Shown: positions 20,201 to 58,492 of the stretch, piece by piece
Position numbering within the stretch: the stretch's first letter is position 1
Layout of the letters: each line of letters starts with the position of its first letter
Assembly (NCBI RefSeq): GCF_052324685.1
Contig: NC_135225.1
Span: forward strand, 15,071,185-15,135,184
DNA: 64,000 nucleotides
From: Brachyhypopomus gauderio
Lineage: Eukaryota > Chordata > Actinopteri > Gymnotiformes > Hypopomidae
Direction: 5' to 3'
Translations under genes and position numbers: made by a program
The notes under the pieces: model-generated
What the model saw: the letters and a program-made list of their open reading frames with translations, nothing else
What the model was told of the DNA's origin: nothing
The model's database searches: none

Positions 20201-22928
20201 GATCACATTACACCCGCACTCCACTCACTGCACTGGTTAGAATAGATTTTAAGGTTCTGCTGATGGTTTTTAAATGTCTTCATGGCCTTGCTCCTCTTTA
20301 CCTCAGTGAAATGATGGTTAGATAAGTTCCAGTCAGGTCTCTCAGGTCTTCAAACAGTAATCTACTGGTGATTCCTAAAAGCTGATTAAAGATTGGCGAG
20401 GGGGCTTTTAGCCACTATGGCCCAAAGCTCTGGAACTCTCTTCCTGAAGAGCTTAGATGCATTTCATCCCTGCACAGATTCAAGAAGAGTCTCAAAACCT
20501 TCCTGTTTAGATCTGTTTTTAGTCAAGAAACTATCACATATTTTACTTTTTTAAATTTTATTTATTTTAATATCACATTATTTTACTTAACTACATTTTA
20601 TGCTTCTAATTATTTTTTATAATTTTGGCATTTTATAATTTCATTATATACTTTCATTGTTTTCTTCTATTATTTTAATAATTTATCATTTTATTATTTT
20701 ATTACCTTATTTGTTTGTTTTCTTCTGTTTCTTCAGTAAAGCAATTTGAGTTCCATGAATTTATGAAAAGGTGAAATACAAATAAAGATTATTATTATTA
20801 TTATTATGATATTATTGACAAACCAGTACCATCTCCATAATCACCACAATGTCTTATTCTGTGCCAACCAGTCATAAAAATGAGGCCCTGTGAGCTGTAG
20901 GGAAGACCAACGTATTCAAACAGTGTGCTTCAGACCATAAACAACATACAAATGTTTTAGAATCAATGTCATATTTGAGATCTATCTGAACCTACATTAA
21001 GTAGAATGTTTTATAGCAAAGTTAGCACACCTGATCACTTACTGTTTTAGTAAATTCTTATAGAAGTATAGAAATGTCAACACTGCCACTGAGACAATCA
21101 TACTGAATGAGAACCAAATAAATGATACATCCCAACAAACAAGACCATACACAATTCAGAACAGTTCTGACTGCTGTACTTAATGTAACACCACAGTACT
21201 GTTGCTCACAACACTCCAGCACTGAAGTATTCTCACTTACTCTATTACTACACAAAGCCTGGCCAGGTACTTCCTACTTATTCTGTGGGGATGATTCCTC
21301 AATGACCACCACTGCGCCAGTGTCTCTCACACTCACACACACACACATACACACACACACACCCATGCTGCTTTTACTCAATACCTCAAGGGTGTGGTCC
21401 GATATCCTCTGTGTAATTAAAGCTTTGTACAGCTTTATTGTTGTATAATGTTATTAATCATGTGCCACTTAGCAAATGCATTACTAGAAACGAGTGAACT
21501 GGCAGGCCTACCAGCACCATGGAAACAACAGCCAAGCACAGTTCCTGTTATACTCCTCTGTAACAGCAGTCTGGAGGAAAAGCCAAACCCCAGAGTCGGG
21601 GTCAGGGGTCAGGGTCCTGGTCAGCTGTGGGGATGTGCCCCACATGTCCCAGCATCCCTAGCATCACCAGCTTTAGTGACCTTTTTTAAAGTCTAAGTCT
21701 CTTAGAAACCGATCTTAAGGCCTTTCTAGCATGTGCCTTAAGACCTCACGGAAACGGTACTCCTTTATGGTCCAGTATGAATGATCTAACACACTGGAAT
21801 GATGAACGTAAATGTGACGGACATTTTTGTTAACAGAGCTACACTAGACACTCCTGGATGACAGGTGGCCCACAGACACACCTGCATTACAGGTGACCCA
21901 CAGACAGTCCGGGATTACAGGTGGTGCACAGACACTTCTGGATTACAGGTGAGTAACCTGTAATCTAAGAATTTGACTGAGCCGAGCACTCCAACCCTCA
22001 TGGCGAAGCATCACTGTAGCGTGCAGCTCTGTGTGGGGACAGGACAGACGTTCCACATACAGAACAGAACAGTGAAATAATGTGACTAACCTTGAGAAAG
22101 CTTCATCCAGATCGTCATCAAGCTCCTGTATAAGAAACAAATGCACCCGCTTTATGTTCACTGCCATCCAGAGTGACTCACAGAGGTCAGGGGTCATACT
22201 CCTTTACAAGGTCAAATTCAAGCACTTTAAAGGTCCATTTTCAATATTTTCCAGCACCTTACAGCTGTAGTAAATTACATATTTACATAAACACATCTTC
22301 AAAATGACGAATTCACTTTTTGTGAAACATAATACTTACAATTTCAAGCATTTTCAAGTACTTCAGACAAAATTCCAGCACTTTTCAAACCTTGAAAATG
22401 CAACATTAAAATTCAAGCATTTCAAAGGATGTCAAGCACCGGTATGAACTCAGAGATGTGCTCTGTAGTCGGGTCCTCATGTAACAGGTCAGTGTACTGC
22501 CGTCAGGCCTGTCTAGAGTGGATGATGGAGAAGTTTGTTTCTAAACCCGCACTGAAGTACTGCTCTGTGTGTTTACCCGCACTGAGGTACTGCCCTGTGT
22601 GTTTACCCGCACTGAGGTACTGCTCTGTGTGTTTACCCGCACTGAAGTACTGCTCTGTGTGTTTACCCGCACTGAAGTACTGCTCTGTGTGTTTACCCGC
22701 ACTGAAGTACTGCTCTGTGTGTTTACCCGCACTGAGGTACTGCCCTGTGTGTTTACCCGCACTGAGGTACTGCTCTGTGTGTTTACTCTGTGTGCTTACT
22801 GTGCTATTCTGTATGTATGTGTGATTACCCATTCAGTGGTACTGTTCTGTTCTGTTCTGTTCTGCGCTGGATGGGGGTCATTATGCACAGCACCTTGCTC
22901 CAAATTCAGCAGGTTCCCTGTAGCCACT

Positions 22929-22986
<58 letters not shown>

Positions 22987-23079: not shown

Positions 23080-23172
<93 letters not shown>

Positions 23173-23289: not shown

Positions 23290-23346
<57 letters not shown>

Positions 23347-23447
23347 ACACGCCCCCTATATGACAGGAAACTGGTTCTGGCTGAATTGGATTTAATCTAA
23401 AAGTGTCAGACCTGACAGCGAGGGGGGAAGAGAGAGACAGAGAAAAA

Positions 23448-23528
<81 letters not shown>

Positions 23529-23593
23529 TGTGTGTGTGTGAGTGTGAGTCTGTGTGTGTGTGTGTGTGAGAGTGTGTGTGTGTGTGTGTGTGT

Positions 23594-23632
<39 letters not shown>

Positions 23633-26600
23633 TGTGAGTGTGAAAGTGTGTGTGTATATATGTATATATCACCTCCTTCTCTCAGTGTGTGTGTGTGTAT
23701 CACCTCCTCCTCTCAGTGCATGCGTGCGTGTGTGTGTATCCCCTCCTCCTCTCAGTGTGGGTGTGTGTGTGTATCACCTCCTCCTCTCAGTGTGGGTGTG
23801 TGTGTGTATCACCTCCTCCTCTCAGTGTGTGTGTGTGTGTATCACCTCCTCCTCTCAGTGTGTGTGTGTGTGTGTGTGTATCACCTCCTCCTCTCAGTGT
23901 GTGTGTGTGTGTATCACCTCCTCCTCTCAGTGTGTGTGTGTGTGTATCACCTCCTCCTCTCAGTGTGTGTGTGTGTGTGTGTGTGTATCACCTCCTCCTC
24001 TCAGTGTGTGTGTGTATCACCTCCTCCTCTCAGAGTGCATCTGTCACCTCCTCCTCTCAGTGTGTGTGTGTGTGTATATCACCTCCTCCTCTCAGTGTGT
24101 GTGTGTGTGTATCACCTCCTCCTCTCAGAGTGCATGTGTCACCTCATCCTCTCAGTGTGTATGTGTGTATCCTCTCCTCCTCTCAGTGTGTGTGTGTGTG
24201 TACCACCTCCTCCTCTCAGTGTGTGTCTGTGTGTATGTGTGTATCTTCTCCTCCTCTCAGTGTGTGTGTGTGTATCCCCTCCTCCTCTCAGTGTGTGTGT
24301 GTGTATCACCTCCTCCTATTGTGGTGGTTCCATTATCTTGTCCATCAGGTGTTGTCTTCACTCGCTTCTCTTTCTCTGAGAGCAGAAACTGAGAGTGACT
24401 TTAAATACACACACACACACACACACATACACGGGATGTGCCATTTTTTATCCATCGTTTACCTATTTTCAGCCAAATAAGTGAAAAGGCTGCATAATTA
24501 TTACCGAACGATGACGTTTTTAATGGATGTTTTACGCCTTAGCTAAAGCTAAAGCTCACGGCTCCAGTGTTACACACATTAACTAAAACTCACAGATCTC
24601 TGTCTGAACTGTGTGGTGTGTGTGTGTGGGGTTAAGTTTGGTATAGTGTTAAGAGTAAGATTAGGGTTAGTAGCCAAATTTGTAGAACTATATACTATAA
24701 TTTGGAGATATCAGCAGACTATTTGTGTTTGTGACTGGCCTTCCACCACGCACACACAGACGTCCCTCACGTGACTGGCATGAAGGGATACCCAGCAGAG
24801 CATACCTTCTTCTTTGGCAGCCTGCCAGAACTCAAACGCCACCCTGAAGGCCTGAGCGACTGTTAGGGTCACTGCCTGAGCCTGGAGAGAGAGAGAGGAG
24901 GGAGAGAGAGAGAGAGAAAAGATAGACATTTAGCAAGGACAAAAAGGATATGTGTGTATATACACTACCGTTCAAAAGTTTGGGGTCACTTAGAAATGTT
25001 CTTATTTTTGAAAGAAAAGCATTTTTTTTTTCAATTTAGCTAACATTAAATGCATCAAAAATACACTCTATATATTATTAATGTGGTAAATGACTATTCT
25101 AGCTGTAAACATCTGGTTTTTAATGCAATATCTACATAGATGTATGGAGACCCATTTCCAACAACCATCACTCCAGTGTTCTAATGGTACATTGTGTTTG
25201 CTAACTCTGCTAACTCTTGCCACAGCTCGTATTGATGTGCCATCCTGGATGAGCTGCACTACCTGAGCCACTTGTGTGGGTTGTAGAGTCCGTCTCATGC
25301 TACCACGAGTGTGAAAGGACCACCAACATTCAAAAGTGACCAAAACATCAGCCAGAAAGCATATGTACTGAGAAGTGGTCTGTGGTCCCCACCTGCAGAA
25401 CCACTCCTTTATAGGGGGGGGGGGGTCTTGCTAATTGCCTCTCATTTCTACCTGCTGTCTATTCCATTTGCACAACAGCAGGTGAAATTGATTCACAATC
25501 TGTGTTGCTTCCTAACTGAACAGGTTGGTTTCACAGAAGTGTAGTTGACTTGGAGTGATATTGTGTTGTTTAAGTGTTCCCTTTATTTTTTTGAGCAGTG
25601 TATATATATATCAAAATTTATTGAATTAATTAGAAGCATTGTAATTAATTAATCAAAATTAATCGCATTTTAATCGCATTTCAATATTTAACATGAGAAA
25701 TATTTATTTAAGTTTGAATGATGAATGAATCAATGAACATAAGCATAAACTTCAACATCTTGTTTATTTTTCCACCAGTCTACTACACAGACCAATAGAT
25801 GAGTGCAGAAAACAGAGCAAACAGTTTTCAGAACACTGGAAATTCTGACCAAAAATGTTGTTTAATTTTGGGAGTTTTGCTCAGGATATTGGAAGAATAA
25901 GAAGAACTGAAGTATATCAGAAGATGTTTTTTTTTCTTTAATTCAGGCATGAAAATGGGTCAGGGGTTAAAAAGGTGAGAAGACCGGGGGCGGGGCATGT
26001 GACATCATGGGGATACGGGGCGTTGACATGTGACGTCATGGGTATACGGCGACGGGGAGGGGGGGTGGCTGCTGGTGTACGGGGATACAGCGACAGGTGA
26101 TGCCAAATATTACGGAGCCCGTAAGGTGACATCATGTAAAAAATATAATAACGCGTGGCCACGACTTACTAACGCGTGCGAACGAGATAATTAACGCGTG
26201 CGAACAAGATAATTAAGTATTACTTTATATAAAGCCAGGTTTACCTTCCTTGGGTAGTCAGTTCGCGAACATCCCTGGGATCTGCTTGCTTTGCTGTGAA
26301 AAAATAAACTTTGTTGCCGCGTGTGAAAGGCGACATTAGTATCTCGTTCCCACGCGTTAGTAAGTCGTGGCCACGCGTTATTATTTTTTTTACATGATGT
26401 CACCTTACGGGCTCCGTAAAATATAGTAAAATCCATAAAAAAAATTTTTTTGACTGTCTTGTCAATGGATTCAATATATGGAGCCAGATCCTTAAACGCG
26501 AGAGGCCGCTTTCGCCATTCCAGATGGCTCAGTCAAAACCATTACATCTTAATGAACCAATAAATACATCAGCAGCGAAAATGAGTGTAAAAATACCAGG

Positions 26601-39760: not shown

Positions 39761-42700
39761 TTATTTTTTGAGAGGCTGGTAGACGGATGCGTTGGGGTCT
39801 AGGCTGGAAGGGCTGGTGTCCATAAACTTGGAGGAGTAGTGCGGTGTGACAGGGCTCATGTTGCTGGTGTCTGCTGAATACGCGATGCTGGGCATGACGG
39901 CCATCACCTCCGCAATCTTCTGCTTCAGGTCCTTTATCTCTTGGTCTTTCTGCAAGATCTGACCTGGGGAAAACAGGAATGTCAGGTTTCCGTATGAGGA
40001 GAAATGTTTAGAACATTCGTACATTTAAACAAAACATCCACAGCATGCACAAGCCCTGAGCAGAGGTCTGCACACTCAGGACTGACGGTGCCACACACCC
40101 GCCCCTCCTACAGCTTTCTGTCTGCTACCTTCAGCCTGACTAACCTTCATACTGATCAATATGATCTTGAGGCTGCTCTGCTAGGTGAGCTACAGTAATT
40201 AATCAGTTTTACAGGCGTCGTAGTAAAACACTCAAACATCTGTGAGGATTCCCAGAGGGCCCCGTGTTGGGGCGCTGGGTGCAGACCTTGTGCGATCTCC
40301 AGTTGTCTCTTGGCGTCTCCGAGAGCGGAGAAGAGGTCCAGCTTGATCCTGGTCTCTGCACTCAAACTGTTCTCCAGGTGCTGCGTCTTCTCCTGCATGG
40401 CTGACAGGGCGGACATCAGCACCTCCGTGTCCTTCTCGCTTTCTTTGTACTTGTGCAGCTCCTGTGGGGCACAAGGCAGCGTGCTGGACCTCAGGCACAT
40501 ACAGGAGGACCCAGAGCGGTGGAGTGAACCGCTGGGCTGTGATCGATGGTTTGGCCGGGTGTGGGAGGCGTGTTGTCACCCACCTGGACTTTGAGCTCGA
40601 GTTCGCGAATCATGTCCTCCTTGACTTTAATGTCCAGTGTGAGTTTCTTACACTCGGTCTCCAGTTCAGAGATTCTCCTCCTCAGAGTCTCTGTGCACTC
40701 ACCTCTGCATGGAGGCAGAAGGTCAGAGGCAGTTAACCACAAACTCGGGCACAAACGCGTGAGACAATGAATGGAGCAGGGGGCGGGGCAGGGGGCGGGG
40801 CACCTGGAGGCGGCTGCTAGGGCGACGGCGCGGGCCGCTGTGGCCTCCTCCAGCTTCTTGCGTTTCCTGTCGTCGGCCAGCTGTCTCTCAGCAGCGGCGC
40901 GAGCATCCTGCTCCACCTTCAGACGCTTCTCCAGCTGACCCAGCATCTGCTTGTCCTTCTGCTTTACCTGCACAGCACTGTGGAGCCTGACACACACACA
41001 CACACACACAGATACGCACACAAACACACATTAGTGTCTATTACAGCTGCAACGTGCAGACACAACACAATGCAGGTCTTTATATAAACCAATAACAATC
41101 AACCAGATAGAAATTATCCCAACAAAATCAAACTCAGTTTAGTCTTTCCTGTTTAAAACATCTGTAGTCATCATGGTGTTACTCATGTAGCACTACTGGA
41201 CTACATGGTAAATGAAGTTACAGAAAAGCTTGTAGCTGCATGGGTAGAGTGTGTGTGCATGTAGGCTTTTATGACCATGAAGTGTAGGCAGTCATGGTTC
41301 GGGGGCAGTCATGATCTGGTGGTAGGGAACTGGTCTTGTGACCGGAGGGTCATGGGTTCGATTCCCAGACCTGAGGCCATGACTGAGGTGCCCTTGAGCA
41401 AGGCACCTAACCCCAACTGCTCCCCGGGCTCCGGGCTAGGGCTGCCCACCGCTCTGGGCACATGTGATCCACAGCCCCCTAATAATCACTAGTGTGTATG
41501 TGTGTTCTAACTGCACAGATGGGTAAAAGCGGAGGACAAATTTCGATTGCTGTGAGGGGAAAAAATTAAATAAATAAATCACAATTGACATAGTATGGCA
41601 CATTTAAATTTTACATTTACAATAACACAAGTGTATATTAGAAGAAAACATAAGTGATGAGTGAAACTGGACCTCAGTTCCAACAATCACAAATCTTAGG
41701 TCACAACTTTACCAGGACCAGCGGAGGGAAAACAGATAGATTCGGACATTTTCTGAGGAGTGAAAATATTGCTAGTTGTACTACCTAAAGAATGTGAATG
41801 GGGTGTGAGTGAGAGTGGTGTGTGTGATTCAGACAGCGGTGTATGTCTGTGTGAGTGCGCGGTGTGCATGAATAAGTGATGTGTGTGAGACAGTGGTGGG
41901 TGTGTATGTGTGTGTGTGACAGTGGTGTGTGTGTTTGAGATCAAGGTGTGTGTGGTGTGTGTGCGCAGTGTGCATGAATAAGTGATTGTGTGTGTGTGTG
42001 TGTGTGTGTGTGCGCACGAGATTGAGGGTGTGTGGGTGTGTGTGTGCGTGAGAGATGTGCTGCAGTCTCTCACTTGTTCTGCAGTAGTTCATTGTCATGG
42101 CGGAGCTGACTGAGTTCTGTGCGTACGCTGCGCTCAGAGCTGCTCAGAGAGCCCAGCTGGCTACGTAGGTCCTGCTCCACCTGCCGGCTCAACTGCAGCT
42201 CCGCCTTTAGCCTCCGCACATCCTGCTCCAGCCTGTCAGACACACACACGTGAACACACACACACACACATGAACACACACACACACGTGAACACACACA
42301 CACACACACGAACACACACACACACACACGAACACACACACACACACGAACACACACACACACACAAGGCCTTTTAGGGTCACCAGTTCAGACGTACAGC
42401 ACTTGTGTTACTGGTTCACACAGAATTACACAGAATCTATACTACTAACTTTCACGGTTTATATGAGCAGCTCACAGGTGACTTACAGTGGGGCCCCATC
42501 TCCACCCTAACCCCAACCCTAACTCCAACCCTTACACCATGGGGTCTCCACTACTGTCTGAAATGGTTGATTTTGTCACTACCGTCTTTCTTCTACAAGC
42601 TCTTTATTTATTAATGCCAATTCAAGCAACGTTTGGTCAATAAAACTAAATGTTTGACTAAGTTTTAGAATTACTGTTAACAGACTATTATTAACGTCAC

Positions 42701-45700
42701 ATGATGCAGAGATAATAAATGTGGCACAACCAACATCAGAATAAACAGAAAATAGTAATTTTAAACCGTGGTGCTGATTCTTCTTGTATTGTACAGGGTG
42801 ACGGGCTTGACAAATGCAGCCATAAAACCGGTTTATTTCCCAGAGTTCTCCTCTGTGAGCACACTCACAAGAACTTGATTCTTTACACCCAAAGTTACAC
42901 CCATGTACCAACCAACACCCATCCACTCATCCTCAGGGGTGTAGGGAGCTGAAGGCATCAGGGGACTCGAAATACAAACTGGAAGAGTCCAATGCCAACA
43001 GCAGACAATAAGCTATCCTACATCCAGACAGCATTCTGAAAACTAAGGCATCCAGTGCATCAAAGTGTGGGGCTGTTGGGTAATCCGTGTGTACGAGTAC
43101 CTGACCCGTAGGTTGTGTGGGCCAGGCTGTGTGTACCTGACCCGTAGGTTGTGTGGGCCAGGCTGTGTGTACCTGACCCGTAGGTTGTGTGGGCCAGGCT
43201 GTGTGTACCTGATCCGTAGGTTGTGTGGGCCAGGCTGTGTGTACCTGACCCGTAGGTTGTGTGGGCCAGGCTGTGTGTACCTGACCCGTAGGTTGTGTGG
43301 GCCAGGCTGTGTATACCTGACCCGTAGGTTGTGTGGGCCAGGCTGTGTATACCTGACCCGTAGGTTGTGTGGGCCAGGCTGTGTGTACGATTACCTGACC
43401 AGTGCCTCAGGCCTGCTGAGCTGGTTATTGGGGATGCAGTTCTCTGCTGGATCTCGGTTTGACCCCGCCCCTTTCCCTCCCCCACACTTTTGTTTCTTCT
43501 CTCCCTTCCCTGAGGAAGAGGATGACGAGGGCGTCGCCGTGGAGGTGGGAACACTGCCATTGGCGGTTCCGTGTCCACGGGGCGATGAGTTCCCCCCGGC
43601 CACACCGCTTCCTGTGGCCTGGTTTTTAAAATTTTTGGAGGAGGTGGAGTTGGAGGAGGAGGAGCATGACGATGATGATGATGAGGAGGAGTTGTCCTCT
43701 TTGGTTTCAGTGCTGCCCAGCAGCTCAGAGCTGCTCAGTCTTTTGCCACTAGTGTGATTCTCCATGTACTCCAGTTCCTGGGCCCTGCAGTCCAGACCAG
43801 GCAGCACACTGCTGCCGCTGTTGTGGTTCTGGTTCTGGTTCTGGTTGGGCTGCTTCTTGGACTCCCTGCTCTCTGCCTTCGCACGCTCCTTCTCCCGGTA
43901 TTCCAGCTCCGGCAGAGGAGTCGTCGCGGGTTTCCTGCCACCAGCAGAGCCGTTCTGAGCCGTGGGGAGAGCGTCGGTTTCGTGGACACCTTTGACTGCA
44001 GCAGTTAGGAGAAACATGTGGAGGAACAGAGGAGCAGACTGAGTAGTGACGCCACTGTACCGTTCACCACACTGAAATCACACTCCTGCTCAACAAGACA
44101 CACTTCATATCACACAGCTCTACTTCTACAGTAATATGAAACCAACTTCACAATGACACCATGTTCATTATTCAGATGTGTCCAAGAGCACACAGGATGT
44201 CTGGTAACAAAACTGCTCTTTTATGAAAATACAGAAAGCCATCATTCAGGGGAGGATATGTGGATTTGTAGTAATGAAAACTATTTAGCCATATTGGTGA
44301 GAAAATGCTCAGATTACCTACATACACTATATTGCCAAAAGTATTCATTCACCCATGCAAATGGTCAGAATCAGGTGTTCCAATCACCTCCATGGCCACA
44401 GGTGTATAAACTTACATGCAGACTGTTTTTTACAAACATTTGTGAAAGAATGGGTCACTCTCAGGAGCTCAGTGAATTCCAGCGTGGAACTGTGATAGGA
44501 TGCCACCTGTACAACAAATCCAGTCTTGAAATTTCCTAAATATTGCACAGTCAACTGTCAGCTGTATTATAAGAAAATGGAAGTGTTTGGGTACAACAGC
44601 AACTCAGCCATGAAGTGGTAGGCCCTGTAAGCCTTGTACCCATGTTAAAATTGTAAAGCGACCATGGGTATCTTGAAAGGTGCTATATGAATTGAACGTT
44701 CAATCATTCATAAACTGACGGAGCGGGGTAAGCGGATGCTGAAGCACATAGTGTGAAGAGGTCACCGACTTTCTGCAGAGTCAATCACTACAGACATCCA
44801 AACATCATGCGGCCTTCAGATTAGCTCAAGAACAGTGCGAAGAGATTCATGTAATGGGTTTCCATGGTTGAGCAGCTGCATCCAAGCCATACATCACCAA
44901 GTGCAATGCAAAGCATCGGATGCAATGAGGAGTTACAAATCACACTTCTTCATCTGGCAATCTGATGGATGAGTCTGGGTTTGGTGGTTGCCAGGAGAAT
45001 GGTACTTGTCTGACTGCATTGTGCCAAGTGTAAATTTTGGTGGAGGGGGGATTATGGTGTGGGGTTGTTTTTCAGGAGTTAGGCTTGGCCCCTTGGTTCT
45101 AATGAAAGGAGCTCTCTCGCACAAAGCAAAGTCCATAAAAACATGGGTGCCAGAGTCTGGTGTGGATGAACTTGACTGGCCTGCACAGAGTCCTGACCTC
45201 AACCTCATGGAACACCTTTGGGATGAATTTGAGTGGAGACTTAGAGCCAGGCCTTCTCATCCAACACCAGTATGTGACCTTACAAATGTGCTTCTGGAAG
45301 AATGGTCAAAAATCCCCATAAACACATTTCTAAACCTTGTGGACAGCCTTCCTAGAAGATTGATGGTGTTCCAGCTGCAAATGGACCAACGTCATATCAA
45401 GAACCCTGTGGATTATGAATGGGATGTCACTTAAGCTAATTTGTGAGTCAACGAAGGTGAGCGAATACTTTTGGCAATATGTATGTGTTTGTATATGTAT
45501 GTATGTACGCTGTGCGCAATTGGCTGCCGCTTCTCGCCGGTGTGTGTGATTGGTTGTGTAAGAGTTGTACCTGTATTAAAATTGTAAAGTGACCTTGGGT
45601 ATCTAGAAAGGCGCTACATGTACATCATGTACATTCATTTCATGTACATATGTATTTTATACACAGAAAAACACACAAGCACATGCAGATTGAGCTCATT

Positions 45701-48700
45701 TACCCCCCCCTCCAGTCTCTTACCCTCCTCTGCCTCCCTCTCCTGTTTCTGCAGCAGCTGTTGTTCTGGAGGCAGGGCCTGCTGTAGGAGCTGCATGTAG
45801 AACTCGTTCTCCTTCTGCACCTCCTTCTGCTTACGCAGCCGCATCTTATAGGTCACGTAGCTCTTGAACCCGAAGCCCAGTGTCACCACGGGGTAGCCGA
45901 TACTGCACACGGGGCACAACACGGAGCTTACTCACACACACACACACACACACTTCACTACTAGGGAAGCTACTGAGATATACACAAATGTCTGTAAAGG
46001 TTGTGTGTGTGTGTGTGTATTAAAACACACTGGTTTGGGGACACTTCTGGGTTCCTGCTCTACTGATTAAAAATCTCCGACATCTAGGCTAAAGCTTTCA
46101 CACTTAAAATTCCTCCAGGGGTGTCTAGTATGAGTTTTAACCACCAGGAAGAAGAAAGGTTGTGTTGGACTGAAGGAGGCTTGAGAAGTATTGTTGCTTC
46201 CTCAGTGGGGAGCGTGACGTATCCTAAAAGGACAGTAATGCAGTAGGAAATCTGAGCTGAGAATCCTCCATTCAGAAAGTCTCTAATTCATCCCTGAATA
46301 GTGTGAGTGTGTGATGATGGATCTGGGTTCAGAGGATCATAATCCCACACGGCATCTGAAGGTCCATCTCAAGCTCCACATCACATGGTCAGTGATGCAG
46401 CACACGCACTGTGTCAGTCTGAAGAACGTGTGTGATCCTCACCAGTGTGCTGCGAACGGGCGACACAGATCCACGTGGAAGTCTTTCAGATCTTTGAATC
46501 TTATAGCTGCCTCTATATAAACAAAGAGTATCCATAGCGACACAGTGGGAAGGCAGACCCCTCTTTCTGCAAGAGAGAGGAAGGAGTGGGAGAGGTTAGT
46601 ATAGCACAGCTGACATCAATGAGGATGAAGCTCACACACACAGTGATGCTACAGGACACCTGCACCAACACAGGGAGCTGTCTGTGTCCTCCCCGGGTTC
46701 CATTCAAACAAGGAGACTGTAATGATGTAGGAGCTCCAGGCTCAGAGTCCCCTATAGTCCCTAAAACACCCCTATAGTCCCTAAAACACTCATGCCCCCC
46801 TCTGCTGTACAGAAAAGACACTACACACCCAACAAAGTAGGGAAATGTGCCAACAGGAGGGCGGTATCCACACCAGATTGGACTGACTGGAAACCTCAGA
46901 AATAGCGTAAGGCCTGAAGAGGTCAAGTGATGTGCTCAGAATGCAGTGGTCCATTACAGCCAGAGTTAAGCGACTGGATGACAGCTGTTCACTAATCAGA
47001 ACACGATTAAGATAAATACCGAGGACATAGTTTACTCAGCCACAGAGGAGACGACACTGGGTGTGATCTGAGACACAGCCCAGGTGTGGACAAAAGAGAT
47101 CAAATACTTTTTGTCACATGCAGAAATAACTAAGCCTACAGCTGTCCACTATAATCTGTGTGTGTGTTCAGAGAGGAAACACCATGTACGTATCCAGGAT
47201 TAGCACAGTGTCACCTTACTGAGTCATGAACATACCTAATCAACACCCCTTTTACCAGAGTCCAAATGACCCACCGTGTTTGTGCTAACAAAGCACCTCT
47301 AAACTCTGGACAGTTCTAACCCTAACCCCAACCCAACCCTAAACCCCAACTCTAACGCCACAGTCAGAGACTTCAGCTCTCACACTTAGAGGGTGTGAAA
47401 CCCTGGGGAGTGGAGAGGTTCTCGAGGGTTCAAAAGTTTTATCTCAACCCTTAAAGGGTTTTGGATAAAAGTTTGAAAGTGAGACTCAATGTATATTTTT
47501 TGTCGTGTGTATCGAGAACTTTAAGACTGAAAAAGCTGACAAACCATTGTCGATGATTGAATATACTTTTTCAATATACAAAAAGTATGCAAAGAAACAT
47601 TTTTTGTTTTATTTCATGATACAATTTCCTGTTTGATTAGCTGGTGAAAACACTTATGGACACTTAGCTTAGCGGTCTGGTAGGAAAATGCTGAAAAGTT
47701 ACATTCTGATAACACCACTGAGGAAGAAGAAAGCGGTCATAAAAACAAAAGCAAGCTAGAGTGCCACAGAGAATCCTGCTTTCTGAGGTACTCAAACACA
47801 CCTACAACACCTCAACACATATGAAGGCTGCTCAGATCTACTCACTTATTGTAACTTTTTGTTGCATGCATGCGGTTAATTCAGGCACTTTCAAACAGCT
47901 CAAAAAATAACAATGAGAATACTTCAAACATACATAATTTAATGACTTCAGTGTTTGCAGGGGAATTGGTTGCATTCAGATGCTTTGCTTGAATAAAGTA
48001 TTGTTGCCAAGTTCCAGGTGTGATGGCTTGACCTGTGCGGCCTAGTTGAGCAGGCCTTACCCGTGTGGCCTTACCTGTGTGCCAGACGTACTGCACCCAC
48101 ACGTAGGTGCTGGCGGCGAAGAACAACCACTGCACAGGGATGAACAGCAGGCAGATGATGTCTGATGTAAACGCCACACATACAAAGAACACTGAGAAAG
48201 CCTGAGGGGGAGAAGAGAGGAGGGTGACATAACGGAGCTGAAAGTCCTTCACCGCACATCAAAACCCCACATGCATTTCAGAAAGAAGGAGCATTATTTG
48301 GTTCTTACTATGACCAACATGACTGAGATGAAGTGTGTGAGAGGAGCTCACCAGACCCTGGTATCTGAAGGAGTCGTACACACTCCGGATGAAGAGCCAG
48401 AACGGCCAGAGGTACTCGAACCTGAACTCCAGCACGAAGTCCGCCAGCAGCACAAGGGCCCACACCACCAGGAACTTCAGGTACAGGAAGGTACTGCAGA
48501 GAATCAGATGCAGGAGAAGCAACACCACACGCTTCCTGGTTATGCAAACGAAAGGACATCATGAATCAAGCACTGATTTGCAGTATTGCACTTAAAAGCG
48601 CCGGACTGTGGAGATGGACCGGGACCCAGAGACAACACATCACTCCTCCGACCGGAGTCCCTCACTGGGCACATCTGTCTTTTTCAAGCCTTATAATTGT

Positions 48701-52250: not shown

Positions 52251-52359
52251 GGGTGTTTGCATGTCTCTGGGTGTTTGCATGGCACTTTGTGCTGCTCCCA
52301 ATTCAGAGGACAGGCTGCCGTGATCCCCTCCCTGGCCAGTAGAGCTCATCCAACAGTCA

Positions 52360-52628
52360 TGCACAGACCCACGGAGGGGTGAACACTCTCACATGCTCAG
52401 ACCCACGGAGGGGTGAACACTCACACACACTCAGACCCACGGAGGGGTGAACACTCTCACATGCTCAGACCCACGGAGGGGTGAACACTCACACACACTC
52501 AGACCCACGGAGGGTGAACACTCACACACACACACAGACCCACGGAGGGGTGAACACTCTCACATGCTCAGACCCACAGAGGGGTGAGCACTCACACACA
52601 CACAGACCCACGGAGGGTGAACACTCTC
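52360..52628. repeat. Minisatellite abutting the rhd start codon
   Basis: Copies of a 30-34 bp unit around AGACCCACGGAGGGGTGAAC, ending directly before ATGGCTCCCC at 52631. The last five units are open in frame with the rhd ATG. Confidence 0.93.
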
Positions 52629-52630
52629 TC

Positions 52631-55600
52631 ATGGCTCCCCGCTACGCTCCCAGTCTGTGGTCGCGGCTGCCACCTGTAGCTCTGCTGCTGGAGGTCATCT
52701 TCATTGTGCTTTTTGCTTTTTTTGTGGAAATAGAGGAGCTCAAAGATAAAAAGAATCAAGAGTTTCTTTACTTCTATGCAAGTGAGTATTTGTATGTATG
52801 TAAGTAAGAATGTATATATTAGTATGTATGTAAGTTTTTAATGTGTATGTTTAGTTTGTGACACAGCTTCTGTTTTAGAGCATGTTTGGAGAAAGTAACC
52901 ACCCTTACACTTCAGTAATAATATCTTGGATGAGCAAATTAGTTTAAGCTAATATACTTCTGGTATGAATATATTATGTATGCCCTGTTTCAGTCAATTG
53001 TGAATCAATTAAAAACACAAATGTGCACTTGTCCTGCAAAGGCAAACTGATCTTCAGGAAGTCTGATATTTATAGTGGATCATTTAGAGTGTACTGCAGT
53101 GTCCATCTTGTTCAGTCTGTGCGCTGTGTAAGGGAGTGACCCTCACTGTTGGGGTGGAGGCACCATGCTCTGCTGGTTTGGGGTGATAAGAGGGCCTCCA
53201 CCCTAACCCTAACCCCTCCACCCTTTAACCGTGTTTGCAAACATTCGTGCACTAATGTAGAATAATTTGCCCTAATTGCCAAGTTGCTACTCCGTCAGCA
53301 GTGCTGGTTTTCCAGCAGAAATCAGGTGAGCGGATCTGGGGTGAGTTTTCCCAAAACGTTCTTAGCGCTAAGTACTTCGTAACCTTGTACTTACATACGA
53401 GGTTACGAAGTACTTAGCGGTAAGAACATTTTGGGAAAACTCACCCCTGTTCAGCAGGTGAGTGGATCAGGTGATAGGATCAGGTGAAAGGATCAGGTGA
53501 CAGGATCTGTTCAATAGGTGAAAGGATCTGTTCAGCAGATGAGTTAGTCAGGTGAGTGGATCGGAGGATCAGTTAATCAAATAAGCTGTTATTAAACTTA
53601 TTTTTGGGGAACGGATTATTATAATAGTACTTATCTAATGAAAGATGGACATCCTTAATAGGCTGCATTATCCATAGCCTTACAGTCACTAAACTAAAGG
53701 CTCCTAAAAATTGCACTTGCCTTCCCTCATTTACAGGCCAATGTCTGATTACTGTGGACACCAAAACACAACTTGCCCTCTCATGAAACAGAAACAAGTG
53801 CTGCATTGTTTACTTATTCACTTAACACCGTAAACAGTGCTGGAGTTCAGCTGAACGCACCAGTACATTTGGGAGACACGCAGTGGCCTTTGTTAGACTG
53901 GACTGTCTACTGTTAGACTGGACTGTCTACCATCTACTGATTTCTGAGTATGCACACGTACCTCGGCTGCCTTTCTTCCCTCTCAGTCTTTCAGGATGTC
54001 CATGTGATGGTGTTCCTGGGCTTTGGCTTTGTGTCTGCGTTCCTGGTGCGCTATGGCTTCAGCGGCGTGGGCTTCGGTTTGCTGGTGGCTGCCATGGTAG
54101 TGCAGTGGGCCACCTTCATCAACGCCTTTCTACCATCTTTCTACTTCAGTCATTTCAACTGGCCAGTCCACATCAATCTCAACAGGTAAGGACATGCTTG
54201 TGTGGATATCAGTTTCTATAAGACCCTAGGGTGCAGTTCTGGCTCATTTTCCCACAAAACCGGCACCAGAACTGGCACCAGAACTGGACCTGCAATGGAC
54301 ACAGAGGGGTTTCATCATCCACACTTGGACATCCCCTATAGATTAAGTTCTTCAGAGAACACTGGTTACCATGACTACACACACACTATAGCACAGCGCC
54401 CACAGGACACTTTCAGACATGTGTCATCATGACTCAGAACACCTCTCCATCACTTTCACAATCTAGTGGTAATTTGTCACCAAGGAGACAAACTAAGGAT
54501 TCGCTCCTGAATTTGCAAGACAGCACCAGCACTCTGGGAGGGGAATATCAGAACACATTTTATAATGTGTCAGTGTGGACTCTGTTGCTATAATTACACC
54601 TCCAGTAAAGCACAGGAGAGATACTTCTGCCTCTGACTTTTAGAAGATTCAGCACATTATAGTCACATAAAATGATTCACTACAGAACCTAAACAATTCC
54701 TTCAACTTAAATGATTCCTTCAACTCAAACGATTCCTTCATCTCAAACGATTCCTTATTCTTCCTTCATCAGCTTGGCTGAGGCGGAGCTGTGTGCTGCC
54801 TCAGCCCTTGTTGCCATGGGAGCGGTCCATGGCAAGACGAACCCTACTCAGCTTCTTCTGTTTGGGCTCCTGGAGGTCACAGGATTTGTGGTGACCCAGA
54901 AGCTCATGGACACACTCTTCAAGGTGAGCAGTGTGCACACACTGCGCCATATCCATGGTCACAGCATCGTTTCCATGGTCACAGCACATTTGACTCAGGT
55001 ATTGTCCATCGGCATTATTCAGTTGTTTTCTGGAAAGGAAACACCTGAAATCAGAAGGTTAACCGCGTACATCCTGAACAAACTCATTTCCATCTCTATT
55101 CTGAATAGTTACATTCTTAGAGACCTAAACGGTACAAACATATACAGTCACACATGATAAAACAGGTATTGTATTGCTGAAATGTAGATGTTTCTTGAAG
55201 CACTCACTGTTTGGTGTGAAGCTGACCACCCTGTTTTACCAGAGCGGGAGGATCTACGCCACCATGCAGATGTATGTGTTCGGCGCTCTGTTTGGAGTGA
55301 TGACGTCCTGGGTGCTCTATCGCAGTGATGCTGAGCCCAGGCATGAGAAAGAAAAGTTTGACAGCAAAACTGGCCTGTTTGCTATGTTAGGTATGGTAGC
55401 AGCATGCCTAATCCAGCTCAAAAAGACCTGCTATTGGCTTAGAACATCACGCTTCTGCTTTGTTGTTGTCATCATTTTGACTTTTTTTGCCTGATTATAA
55501 GGAAAGAGTAATACTGTTATGAAGAGAAGTACTGATATAAATAGTAATACTGTTTTAGAGAGTAGTACTGCTATAAAGAGTAATACTGCTATAGAGTACT

Positions 55601-58492
55601 ACTGTTTTAAATAGTAGTACTGTTATAAAGAGTAATACTGTTATAAATAGTAGTACTGTTTTAAAGAATAGTACTGTTTTAAAGAGCATTTCCTCTGCCT
55701 TGTGAAAGGGAAAAGGTGTATAAGCTTTATGTCACTTAGTGCAGATCTGCCCCTCCCCCCAGGTCTGTTGTTTCTGTGGATGTTTTGGCCCAGTATGAAC
55801 TTCATGCAAGTAAAGGACATCAGGGTAGTGTACAGCACATATCTGGCCCAGGCTGTGAGTGCAGTGACCGCCATGGCCGTCTCCGTGCTGTCAAGTCCTA
55901 AAGGGAAAATCAACCTGGTCAGTCTGCCAAGCTTTTCTTATTACGTCTTAGACAGGCTAAGATAGTCTTAAGATTAACATAAATAAATATTAATTCAAGA
56001 CTACTTTAAGACCGATTTTCTTGAAGATGCTAGTGCACCCCAATATGCTGAGATGATACCTTATCTATAGGAATCATTTTACTGTGAACTATGCATGTCT
56101 ATGTGTGACCCAATAAACTTGTAGGAAACTCTAGTTTCCCAAATCTCCTCCCAGATACTAAAAGCAACAAAGCTGCTGTCACTAACATCCCATCACATTC
56201 AGTTTAGTAAGTCAACGTCAGCTCTTTACTATGCAGATCAGACAATGTTTTCAAAATTGTACTAAAATAGTCATAAATGTTAAAAGTTTTGACATAGTTG
56301 GTTAACCCTGGCTGTGTCAGACGTCTGAGGGCTCTCGCCCTCCTCCTACTCTCACCCTCCTCCTACTCTCACCCTCCTCCTCTCTCACTCCTCCTACTCT
56401 CACCCTCCTCCTACTCTCTCACTCCTCCTACTCTCTCACTCCTCCTACTCTCACCCTCCTCCTACTCTCTCACTCCTCCTACTCTCTCACTCCTCCTACT
56501 CTCACCCTCCTCCTACTCTCTCACTCCTCCTACTCTCTCACTTCTCCTACTCTCTCACTCCTCCTACTCTCACCCTCCTCCTCTCTCACTTCTCCTACTC
56601 TCACCCTCCTCCTACTCTCTCACTCCTCCTACTCTCTCACTTCTCCTACTCTCTCACTCCTCCTACTCACGCTCCTCCTACTCTCACCCTCCTCCTACAC
56701 GCTCACTCCTCCTACTCACGCTCCTCCTACTCTCACCCTCCTCCTACACGCTCACTCCTCCTACTCTCACCCTCCTCCTACTCTCACTCCTCCTGCACTC
56801 TTACTCCTCCTACTCTCTTACTCCTCCTGCTCTCTCACTCCTCCTACTCTCATTCCTCCTACTCTCACACTCCTCCTACTCTCTCGCTTTTCCTACTCTC
56901 ACTCCTCCTACTCTCTCACTCCTCCTACTCTCACACTCCTTCTACTCTCTCACTCCTCCTACTCTCTCACTCCTCCTACTGTCTCACTACTGCTACTCTC
57001 ACTCTCCTCCTACTCTGTCACTCCCACCAGGTGCATGTACAGGGTGCCTCCCTGGCAGGAGGGGTTGCTATTGGAGCAGCTAGAACAGTCCATGATCCAT
57101 GGGTTGCCATGGTGATTGGCATGTGCGCTGGCCTTTTGTCCGCACTGGGATATCGATATATGAAGGTTAGTGCAGGTCACATGATCAATCAGTCCCTCCA
57201 AAGCAAGCAGATCTGTCAGCCTTATTTGGTTAGGGGACAGATCTCATCTTTGTTTGTACCTTGTTGACATGTTGGTATAAAGATGTTTGCCACACTACAC
57301 TTTATTGTACATTTTACATATGGTAAATAGGTACAAGTTTGAGAATGCCATTAGGACACTTTTCCTGGGGTAATGATCTCAATATGCCTTTGTGTATTTA
57401 TGTCATTAATAATCAACTCTCTGTTTCCCAGGATCACATGCTGTTTGCATTTGAGTGTCATGACACCTGTAGTGTCCTGAGTGTTTATGCCATACCAGGA
57501 ATTCTGGGAACTTTTGGCCATCTCATTCTACAGCTGACCAGCACTGACGATCTTACAATGTAAAATCAAATTCCATATTACATAGCAAATTTAGAATGGA
57601 ATTTTACATTCTGAATAGCAATGATATGTATGTAAAAAGTCTAATATATATATTGAATGTTTCTGTTGTGTCTTCTCCAGAGCCATCAGGTTTGCAGTAC
57701 ATTTCATCTGTGTTGTATTTATCTCCATCAGTATGAGCCTGGTCACAGGCTCCATCACAGGTGTGTCACTATGGTAACTCAATTTAATTAAGAAGGGAAG
57801 CCAGGTTTAGACCCCCTACCTGCTGTGGGAGTGTTTATAAAGGCCTTGTTACTCATGTGCTATGTACTTACACATCTGTAGTGGAGATGTCATTTAACAG
57901 GTGTGTAAAGCCCAGAATAAGTGATCACCATTTGTTTAAAATTCCCTCATTTCAGAAAACAGCCCTTATCATCAAGCCATTAGCTATAAATCACTTTTGC
58001 AGTCATATCATTTAGCAATGCATGTTTACTGAAGTTTGTAAGATTTGTTTGATTTAATAACCTACATGCTTAATTCGTGTACCAAATTTAAATATCCTTC
58101 TAGCGCCTTATCTAGAGGTCCCGTAGACTACAATAATCTACAGTTTCCTTTATTCTGTACATTTAAAGGATTCCTCCTAAAACTAAAATTTTGGAAACCT
58201 CAGCAAGACAGGAAGTGCTTTGATGATCAGGCATTCTGGGAGGTGAGCAGATTTAAAATCTCACTAACTAAAAATTCACAGAATCACTAAAGTTCCGCTA
58301 CAACTCTCCCTGTATAGAAGAACTGTTCTACTCTCATTCTTGAAAAAAATTTCAGTTTGGTGGAAATCAAAGGAAGGTTTCCACTAATGTAATGAATCCA
58401 TTAATGTAATTCGTTTGTAACTAACTTGCTGTTGTCTTGATTGTTCTTGGATGTGTTTTCTACAGTTCCCACACTTAGCAGTGCACAAGTGA
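52631..58492 (+). CDS. rhd: Rh blood group protein (Rh30 type), 10 exons, 415 aa
   Basis: Member of the Amt/Rh family of 12-helix membrane proteins; Rh30 proteins partner RhAG in red cells. Plus-strand exons are 52631-52781, 53987-54185, 54773-54923, 55243-55390, 55763-55917, 57031-57165, 57432-57559, 57681-57760, 58169-58242 and 58466-58492. Phase is continuous (1248 nt; human RHCE is 417 aa and also has 10 exons). Family signatures include [11 protein letters not shown] (exon 5), [10 protein letters not shown] (exon 6), AIPGILG (exon 7) and the C-terminus [18 protein letters not shown]. The two pore histidines of RhAG/RhCG are replaced by tyrosine (Y178 in [10 protein letters not shown]332 in VYAIPG), as in human Rh30, so ammonia conduction by the usual route is unlikely. 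The chosen ATG starts [13 protein letters not shown]. An in-frame open stretch upstream is minisatellite and was excluded. Exon 10 codes only FPHLAVHK. The gene could be named rhce by position. Confidence 0.95.
53338..53447. repeat. Snap-back inverted repeat (48-bp arms, 14-bp loop)
   Basis: Left arm 53338-53385 and right arm 53400-53447 pair with two mismatches. Arms begin GGGGTGAGTTTTCCCAAAA. It lies in rhd intron 1 and resembles small fold-back MITEs. Confidence 0.9.
55505..55690. repeat. Tandem repeat in rhd intron 4
   Basis: Imperfect units around AAAGAGTAATACTGTTATAA, ending about 70 bp before the exon 5 acceptor. Confidence 0.8.
56335..57025. repeat. Pyrimidine-strand minisatellite before rhd exon 6
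   Basis: About 690 bp of CTCCTACTCTCACTCCTC-type units, almost purely C/T with A steps. It runs to within a few bases of the exon 6 acceptor CCCACCAG at 57030. Confidence 0.93.

What the first reader, a model, noticed from the sequence alone, without database searches (positions are those of the whole stretch)
23660..24375. Minisatellite that multiplies the ldlrap1 exon 6 splice donor about 20-fold
The exon 6 junction AGGAGGAG|GTGATAC is repeated in nearly every unit of the array directly downstream. The spliceosome would meet about 20 near-identical donors in a row, separated by TG runs. Array length could tune which donor is used and so the linker length between the PTB domain and the clathrin box, or could act as a U1 decoy array. 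It seems to have grown from the junction itself.
Basis: partly seen in the sequence, partly recalled or inferred. Interest (0 to 1): 0.82.

Follow-up and report, generated by a model that had tools for sequence, protein, structure and literature searches.

The report
Minisatellite repeating a fish splice site
In a fish cholesterol-receptor adaptor gene, the signal marking the end of exon 6 has been copied about twenty times into the next intron; this resembles known junction-copying repeats, cannot lengthen the protein as first guessed, and may feed an RNA structure that joins the two ends of the intron.

Summary
On the minus strand, ldlrap1 exon 6 ends AGGAGGAG|GTGATAC (last base 24310), followed by 19 tandem units, mostly 27-41 nt. 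Of these, 15 of 19 keep GT at the junction-equivalent site; 12 of the 15 carry the identical nine-base donor GAG|GTGATA.

The main interpretation fails. An in-frame TGA (24259-24257) lies 50 nt past the junction, before each of the 15 intact array donors. Using any of them truncates the protein before the clathrin box, so the linker cannot be length-tuned in this allele.

The array fits a known kind, the "mirage": a minisatellite built from an exon-intron boundary, described in amphioxus, with human parallels in ABCA7 and IFI6. Here 3 of 27 donors (ldlrap1 exon 6, maco1 exons 3 and 6) have a copy at 13/14 or better in their own intron, against 0 of 702 mismatched donor-intron pairs.

The intron also has the AC...GT layout of fish "bridging" introns: AC runs at the donor, (GT)26 before the acceptor. 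Each unit is a donor plus an AC arm, and folding pairs the acceptor's UG arm with the array. Splicing itself is untested: no RNA data, relatives or second allele.

The parts
24310..24375 (-). ldlrap1 exon 6, 66 nt, phase 1 at both ends; its last 8 nt AGGAGGAG recur in the array
   Evidence: frame-consistent gene model; ends located with a recalled human protein for the neighbouring exons
23656..24309 (-). donor-copying array: intron part of the junction unit plus 19 units, each CTGAGAGGAGGAG + donor-like GTGATA + AC run; 15 of 19 keep GT
24257..24259 (-). in-frame TGA met on read-through, 50 nt past the junction and upstream of each of the 15 intact array donors
23451..23655 (-). long CA tract (TG on the plus strand) directly after the array; folds with the two internal UG tracts
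23294..23350 (-). internal UG tract 1 of intron 6
23083..23164 (-). internal UG tract 2 of intron 6
22930..22984 (-). (GT)26 and TAG forming the acceptor region of intron 6; predicted partner of the array's AC arms
22829..22929 (-). ldlrap1 exon 7, with clathrin-box-like LLNLE
   Evidence: the name of the motif is recalled
43097..43395 (-). sister case: maco1 exon 6 donor GGTCAG|GTA and 36-bp array repeating GGTCAG|GTA
48053..48081 (-). sister case: maco1 exon 3 donor ACACAG|GTAAGGCC and one tandem copy ACACGG|GTAAGGCC

Best explanation
The array is a mirage-type minisatellite. A tandem duplication spanning the exon 6/intron 6 boundary of ldlrap1 (about 8 nt of exon, the donor, and an adjoining AC run) was multiplied to about 20 copies, which now lie inside the intron. 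Shown here: the anatomy, the excess of junction copying at donors in this window, the stop codon that precedes each intact downstream donor, and the AC...GT layout of the intron. Inferred: the first donor makes nearly all productive mRNA; occasional use of array donors gives transcripts with a premature stop; and AC arms of the units pair with the (UG)26 tract at the acceptor, bridging the intron ends as in the AC/GT introns described in fish. The array is tolerated, rather than selected for donor choice, because duplicating a donor downstream of itself leaves the first donor intact.
For: Units carry 8 exon nt, the donor and the AC run. 3 of 27 donors have a copy at 13/14 or better in their own intron against 0 of 702 other donor-intron cells; permutation rate 2e-5; reversed and complemented junctions 0 of 27. 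In maco1 exons 3 and 6 the copied exon end encodes protein matching recalled human MACO1, so the exon is the source there. All 15 intact array donors lie behind an in-frame stop. Intron 6 has AC runs from +5 and (GT)26 next to the acceptor; the 3 of 27 introns with donor-side AC runs are all among the 8 of 27 with acceptor-side GT runs (P about 0.02 by hand). The acceptor's pyrimidine fraction (0.48) is the lowest of 27. Folding pairs 52 of 53 nt of the acceptor UG tract with the array, also for shortened arrays of 4, 8 and 10 units and at 25 C.
Against: The fold prefers the long AC arms of units 10 and 13 (about 20 pairs each), with only 0.6 pairs for the arm at the authentic donor; with 0 or 1 unit kept, the acceptor tract pairs mostly with the long CA tract instead, so a bridge would form without the array. 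CA/UG pairing is nearly automatic with such repeats, and CA/TG tracts are common in this window. For maco1 exon 6 the 13/14 copy is the last, distal one; the inner units share GGTCAG|GTA but only about 10 of 14 (counted by eye), and one of them has GATCAG. Whether ldlrap1 exon 6 gave rise to the array or took its end from it was not tested. No RNA data.
Confidence: 0.55

Rival explanations
1. Plain passenger: a minisatellite grown from the junction with no role for its AC arms. The CA and UG tracts are ordinary microsatellites, and splicing simply uses the first donor.
For: The window is rich in repeats: 109 TRF rows, 52 merged minisatellite loci. Amphioxus mirages are reported not to interfere with splicing (PMC3087553, passages). 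The fold does not favour the authentic donor.
Against: The acceptor has no ordinary pyrimidine tract, only (UG)26, and AC and GT runs sit at the ends known for bridging introns.
Confidence: 0.3
2. Waste or decoy switch: array donors compete with the real donor for U1, and their use sends transcripts to decay, so array length sets ldlrap1 output.
For: 12 of 19 units carry the same nine-base donor as the exon; all 15 intact ones lead to a stop. 6 of 11 core substitutions fall on the GT (P 4e-4) and 3 of 4 GT-less units are among the first four (P 0.016), as if near competitors were being removed (tested after seeing the data, changes not independent). IFI6 uses repeat units as donors (PMC4526556, passage).
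Against: In ABCA7 the donor one unit downstream is used at about 2% and does not respond to VNTR length (PMC5954066, passages). Edge units of such arrays diverge anyway.
Confidence: 0.12
3. Array first: the array was already in the intron and exon 6 took its present donor from the first unit after losing an older one.
For: The exon 6 tail does not align with the recalled human protein beyond [14 protein letters not shown], so its end may be new.
Against: In both maco1 cases the exon is the source. The present donor is in phase with exon 7.
Confidence: 0.12
4. Linker tuning: alternative array donors lengthen the linker between the PTB domain and the clathrin box.
For: Donors of equal score are present; 2 of the 15 (23992, 23704) lie a multiple of three from the junction.
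Against: 0 of 15 array donors give a full-length frame; all are preceded by the TGA at 24259-24257.
Confidence: 0.02

Closest known systems
Mirages of amphioxus (Adh3, globin, troponin C and PGBD5 genes)
   [quoted passage not shown] Adh3 units of 10-72 bp (PMC3087553 and PMC3902484, passages)
   Different: Here in a vertebrate gene; units include an AC arm facing a UG tract at the acceptor. Splicing and length instability were shown there and are untested here
ABCA7 intron 18 VNTR (human)
   Same: Tandem array flanking an exon and including its donor; a donor one unit downstream gives a frameshift (PMC5954066, abstract and passages)
   Different: 25 bp C-rich unit, starting at the GT; no AC/GT layout is mentioned in the passages I saw
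IFI6 (6-16, G1P3) minisatellite
   Same: Repeat units serve as alternative donors (one passage of PMC4526556 citing Turri 1995; the 1995 paper is not held)
   Different: There downstream units yield known mRNA variants; here they would meet a stop first
AC/GT bridging introns of fish (Lin et al. 2016)
   Same: Dinucleotide repeats at opposite intron ends that pair; splicing without U2AF2 in zebrafish (seen through PMC9198270, passage, and PMC7404189, section 4.1; the paper itself is not held)
   Different: Here the donor side is about 20 AC arms, each behind a donor-like site, rather than one run

Membership tests
Mirage (junction-spanning minisatellite) | tandem repeat of minisatellite size | tested here: met
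   19 units after the junction, mostly 27-41 nt
Mirage (junction-spanning minisatellite) | unit spans the exon-intron boundary, with exon and intron bases and the splice signal | tested here: met
   AGGAGGAG from the exon plus GTGATAC...; GT kept in 15 of 19 units
Mirage (junction-spanning minisatellite) | regular splicing continues despite the copies | not testable with these tools
   needs RNA data
Mirage (junction-spanning minisatellite) | length instability between alleles | not testable with these tools
   one allele only; own-genome search unanswered
AC/GT bridging intron | AC repeats near the donor and GT repeats near the acceptor | tested here: met
   AC runs from +5, (GT)26 ending 2 nt before the G of the acceptor TAG end
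AC/GT bridging intron | the two ends pair in the RNA | tested here: inconclusive
   predicted 52 of 53 nt of the UG tract with the array, but mainly with units 10 and 13; prediction only
AC/GT bridging intron | splicing independent of U2AF2 | not testable with these tools
   needs a knock-down experiment
   0 of 15

The most novel reading that the evidence does not exclude
The array is a set of about 20 modules, each a donor-like site plus an AC arm, competing for one (UG)26 arm at the acceptor. The AC-arm lengths, which change by slippage, decide which donor is brought to the acceptor; since only the first donor gives protein, array make-up sets the productive fraction of ldlrap1 mRNA. The fold's preference for the long-armed units 10 and 13, both with intact donors, would then be a real drain on output.
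Probability: 0.08. Interest if true: 0.75.

Novelty: new variant of a known kind. Interest (0 to 1): 0.45.

Why it matters
If right, junction-copying minisatellites recur outside amphioxus, in a fish gene neighbourhood (3 of 27 donors in 64 kb), and here one has multiplied a donor together with its possible structural arm. That gives a natural test of whether distance, exon definition or RNA bridging chooses between identical donors, and of how introns lengthen without breaking the gene.

Tried and rejected
Linker-length tuning: rejected for this allele by the in-frame stop.

Exon 7's downstream 30-bp array (22545-22786, CGG|GTAAAC) as a further junction copy: not accepted. The best copy of the exon 7 junction in its own intron is 10/14 and 3 of 26 other introns do as well; no other 13/14 match to it exists in the window.

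Arrays next to donors as a general effect: 5 of 27 donors have one within the set limits against 1.56 expected (P 0.016), or P 0.037 when only the 39 arrays of the gene span are placed; acceptors 4 against 1.59 (P 0.064), or P 0.115 in the gene span. Two of the five, ldlrap1 exon 1 and maco1 exon 8, are not convincing copies: own-intron scores 11 and 9 of 14. At a lower threshold the matrix test is less clean: 12/14 gives 4 of 27 own (adding Rh exon 8) and 3 of 702 others; 11/14 gives 6 of 27 and 14 of 702.

U1 duplex energies and a donor weight matrix were used only to rank sites; the frequencies and the U1 5' end are recalled.

Errors in my models: three acceptors are off by 1-2 nt (maco1 exon 9, Rh exons 5 and 6) and the Rh start by one. 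The maco1 model has an internal stop at index 533, which I put down to the exon 9 start; it lies downstream of the exon 6 results used.

Searches for LDLRAP1 with zebrafish and exon 6 gave 0 papers. A paper on micro-exons uses LDLRAP1 only as a structural template in the two passages seen. A sea bream myostatin paper mentions minisatellites in growth hormone introns but in the four passages seen nothing on donors. Relatives could not be compared: by their descriptions the collections offered hold no vertebrate genomes, so I ran no scan of them.

Full report
Setting. The window carries ldlrap1 (minus, 9 exons, 34247 to about 17233), maco1 (minus, 11 exons, 51031 to about 39761) and an Rh-type transporter gene (plus, 10 exons, from about 52631). 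One reading frame of the Rh gene matches Rh type A and type C structures (E 4.7e-8 and 1.1e-6). Exon ends were set by frame and splice signals; three acceptors in that table are off by 1-2 nt. A ray-finned fish is likely from gene content and repeats (inference); no tool named the species.

Observation. Exon 6 of ldlrap1 (24375-24310, 66 nt) ends AGGAGGAG|GTGATAC. Nineteen units follow, each CTGAGAGGAGGAG or a near copy, a donor-like GTGATA or a variant, and in most an AC run. The 13-base core GGAGGAGGTGATA occurs 12 times, all in the array on the minus strand, and not on the plus strand. Fifteen of 19 units keep the GT: 12 GTGATA, 2 GTGACA, 1 GTGGTA. A search of both strands of the window for the 14-nt junction at 13/14 finds 15 sites including the junction itself, all in the array on the minus strand.

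Is the junction right? Exon 5 ends in phase 1, exon 6 with this donor ends in phase 1, and exon 7 starts AAGTGGCT after TGTAG, giving GAA GTG GCT. The spliced product reads from MDALKSAG through ...[18 protein letters not shown]... to ...DVIGF. The one other GT that the scan listed inside exon 6 (after 24362, score 1.8) gives a stop. No transcript was available to confirm this.

What the copies could do to the protein. Reading on past the junction, the frame meets TGA at 24259-24257, 50 nt downstream. The first downstream unit with an intact GT has its junction at 24207. All 15 array donors therefore give a stop at the same place (index 216 counted from zero), before the clathrin box. Longer linkers are not available from this allele. 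Exon junctions follow the stop, so nonsense-mediated decay is the expected fate (recalled rule; not tested). Exon 6 has a length divisible by three, so skipping it would be in frame.

Is the copying more than chance? For each of 27 donors I took 14 nt spanning the junction (6 exon, 8 intron) and sought the best ungapped match in the first 400 nt of every intron, cut at the intron's end. Three donors reach 13/14 in their own intron (ldlrap1 exon 6 at 14; maco1 exons 3 and 6 at 13); 0 of 702 other cells do. With intron labels permuted, three or more arose at a rate of 2e-5; reversed and complemented junctions gave 0 of 27 at 13/14. At 12/14 the counts are 4 of 27 and 3 of 702, at 11/14 6 of 27 and 14 of 702. 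A placement test of 52 merged minisatellite loci found 5 donors with an adjoining array against 1.56 expected (P 0.016; P 0.037 within the gene span) and 4 acceptors against 1.59 (P 0.064; P 0.115). This second test is moderate and includes weak cases.

Direction of copying. maco1 exon 6 ends ...[13 protein letters not shown], against ...PNNQLSKPDALVR in the recalled human protein, and the 36-bp units repeat GGTCAG|GTA. The 13/14 match there is to the last copy only; the inner units share about 10 of 14 by my count, and one has GATCAG. maco1 exon 3 ends ...VWHT, with ACACAG|GTAAGGCC followed at once by ACACGG|GTAAGGCC. In both the exon must be the source. For ldlrap1 exon 6 the tail is not human-like, so growth from the junction is likely by analogy, not shown.

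The intron. Intron 6 (1380 nt) has AC runs from +5 and ends in (GT)26 and TAG. The pyrimidine fraction of the 25 bases tested before its acceptor is 0.48, the lowest of 27. Of 27 introns, three have an AC run of at least 5 repeats in the first 200 nt (ldlrap1 5 and 6, maco1 7), eight have a GT run of at least 5 in the last 200 nt, and all three are among the eight; no intron has the reverse pair (hypergeometric P about 0.02, worked by hand). Introns of fish with such repeats at opposite ends, paired in RNA and spliced without U2AF2, are described by Lin and colleagues, which I saw only through reviews.

Folding. Over 1476 nt from exon 6 into exon 7, the long CA tract pairs with the two internal UG tracts (80.6 and 56.8 expected pairs), while the acceptor UG tract pairs 52 of its 53 nt with the array. 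With 0 or 1 array unit kept, the acceptor tract pairs mostly with the long CA tract; with the first 4 or 8, the last 10, or all 19 units it pairs with the array, at 37 and 25 C. In the full array most pairs go to units 10 and 13, which have long AC arms, and 0.6 to the arm at the authentic donor. This speaks against a simple view that bridging selects the authentic donor, and the model ignores proteins that bind CA repeats (hnRNP L, recalled).

A hint of selection. In the 19-base core, 6 of 11 substitutions over 19 units fall on the two GT bases (binomial P 4e-4), and 3 of the 4 GT-less units are among the first four (P 0.016). Both tests were made after seeing the data, two units have adjacent double changes, and edge units of such clusters escape homogenisation anyway. 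I treat it as a lead.

What is known. [quoted passage not shown] many units carry splice signals, and they are reported not to interfere with splicing (PMC3087553 and PMC3902484, passages). The human ABCA7 intron 18 VNTR includes the exon 18 donor; a donor one unit downstream is used at about 2%, frameshifts, and did not respond to VNTR size, while exon 19 skipping rose with size (PMC5954066, abstract and passages). IFI6 uses downstream repeat units as donors (PMC4526556, one passage). Tandem repeats at exon-intron boundaries are linked to new introns in human duplicated genes (PMC2812944, passages). My ten counted paper searches listed no report of this array, or of a mirage combined with an AC/GT intron, by title or abstract start; the library holds part of the literature.

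Verdict. A real and well-formed case of a known kind, a donor-copying minisatellite, with two sister cases in the same window and an intron layout that gives the copies a possible structural arm. The protein-tuning idea fails for this allele; the bridging idea is plausible and testable.

Noticed in passing
22545-22786: A 30-bp array (8.1 copies) after ldlrap1 exon 7 carries CGG|GTAAAC in its units (7 sites listed, score 4.9), above exon 7's own donor TGG|GTAATC (3.1); use of each gives a stop at index 243. It is not a clear copy of the junction.
   Followed up: partly
56332-57024: A 17-bp pyrimidine-rich array of about 42 copies ends right before the acceptor of Rh exon 6, so that the intron's pyrimidine tract is about 690 bp long.
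   Followed up: no
54691-54756: An 18-bp array lies 17 nt before the Rh exon 3 acceptor; a unit reads CCTTCATCTC where the acceptor reads CCTTCATCAG, perhaps an acceptor-side counterpart.
   Followed up: no
53455-53534: A 13-bp array in Rh intron 1, sense strand, with CAGGTGA-like donor strings in several units, far from an exon in my model.
   Followed up: no
40776-40804: After the maco1 exon 8 donor CAG|GTGCCCCGCCCC comes CTGCCCCGCCCC, a 12-bp near copy without GT.
   Followed up: partly
52358-52633: A 34-bp array runs up to the start codon of the Rh gene.
   Followed up: no
41000-42074: maco1 intron 7 also has AC runs near its donor and a GT run 3 nt from its acceptor, a second AC/GT-type intron.
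   Followed up: partly
23385-24480: On the plus strand the array is open in all three frames (259, 278 and 335 codons stop to stop) and reads as (TG)n, pyrimidines, CAG, an acceptor-like string.
   Followed up: no
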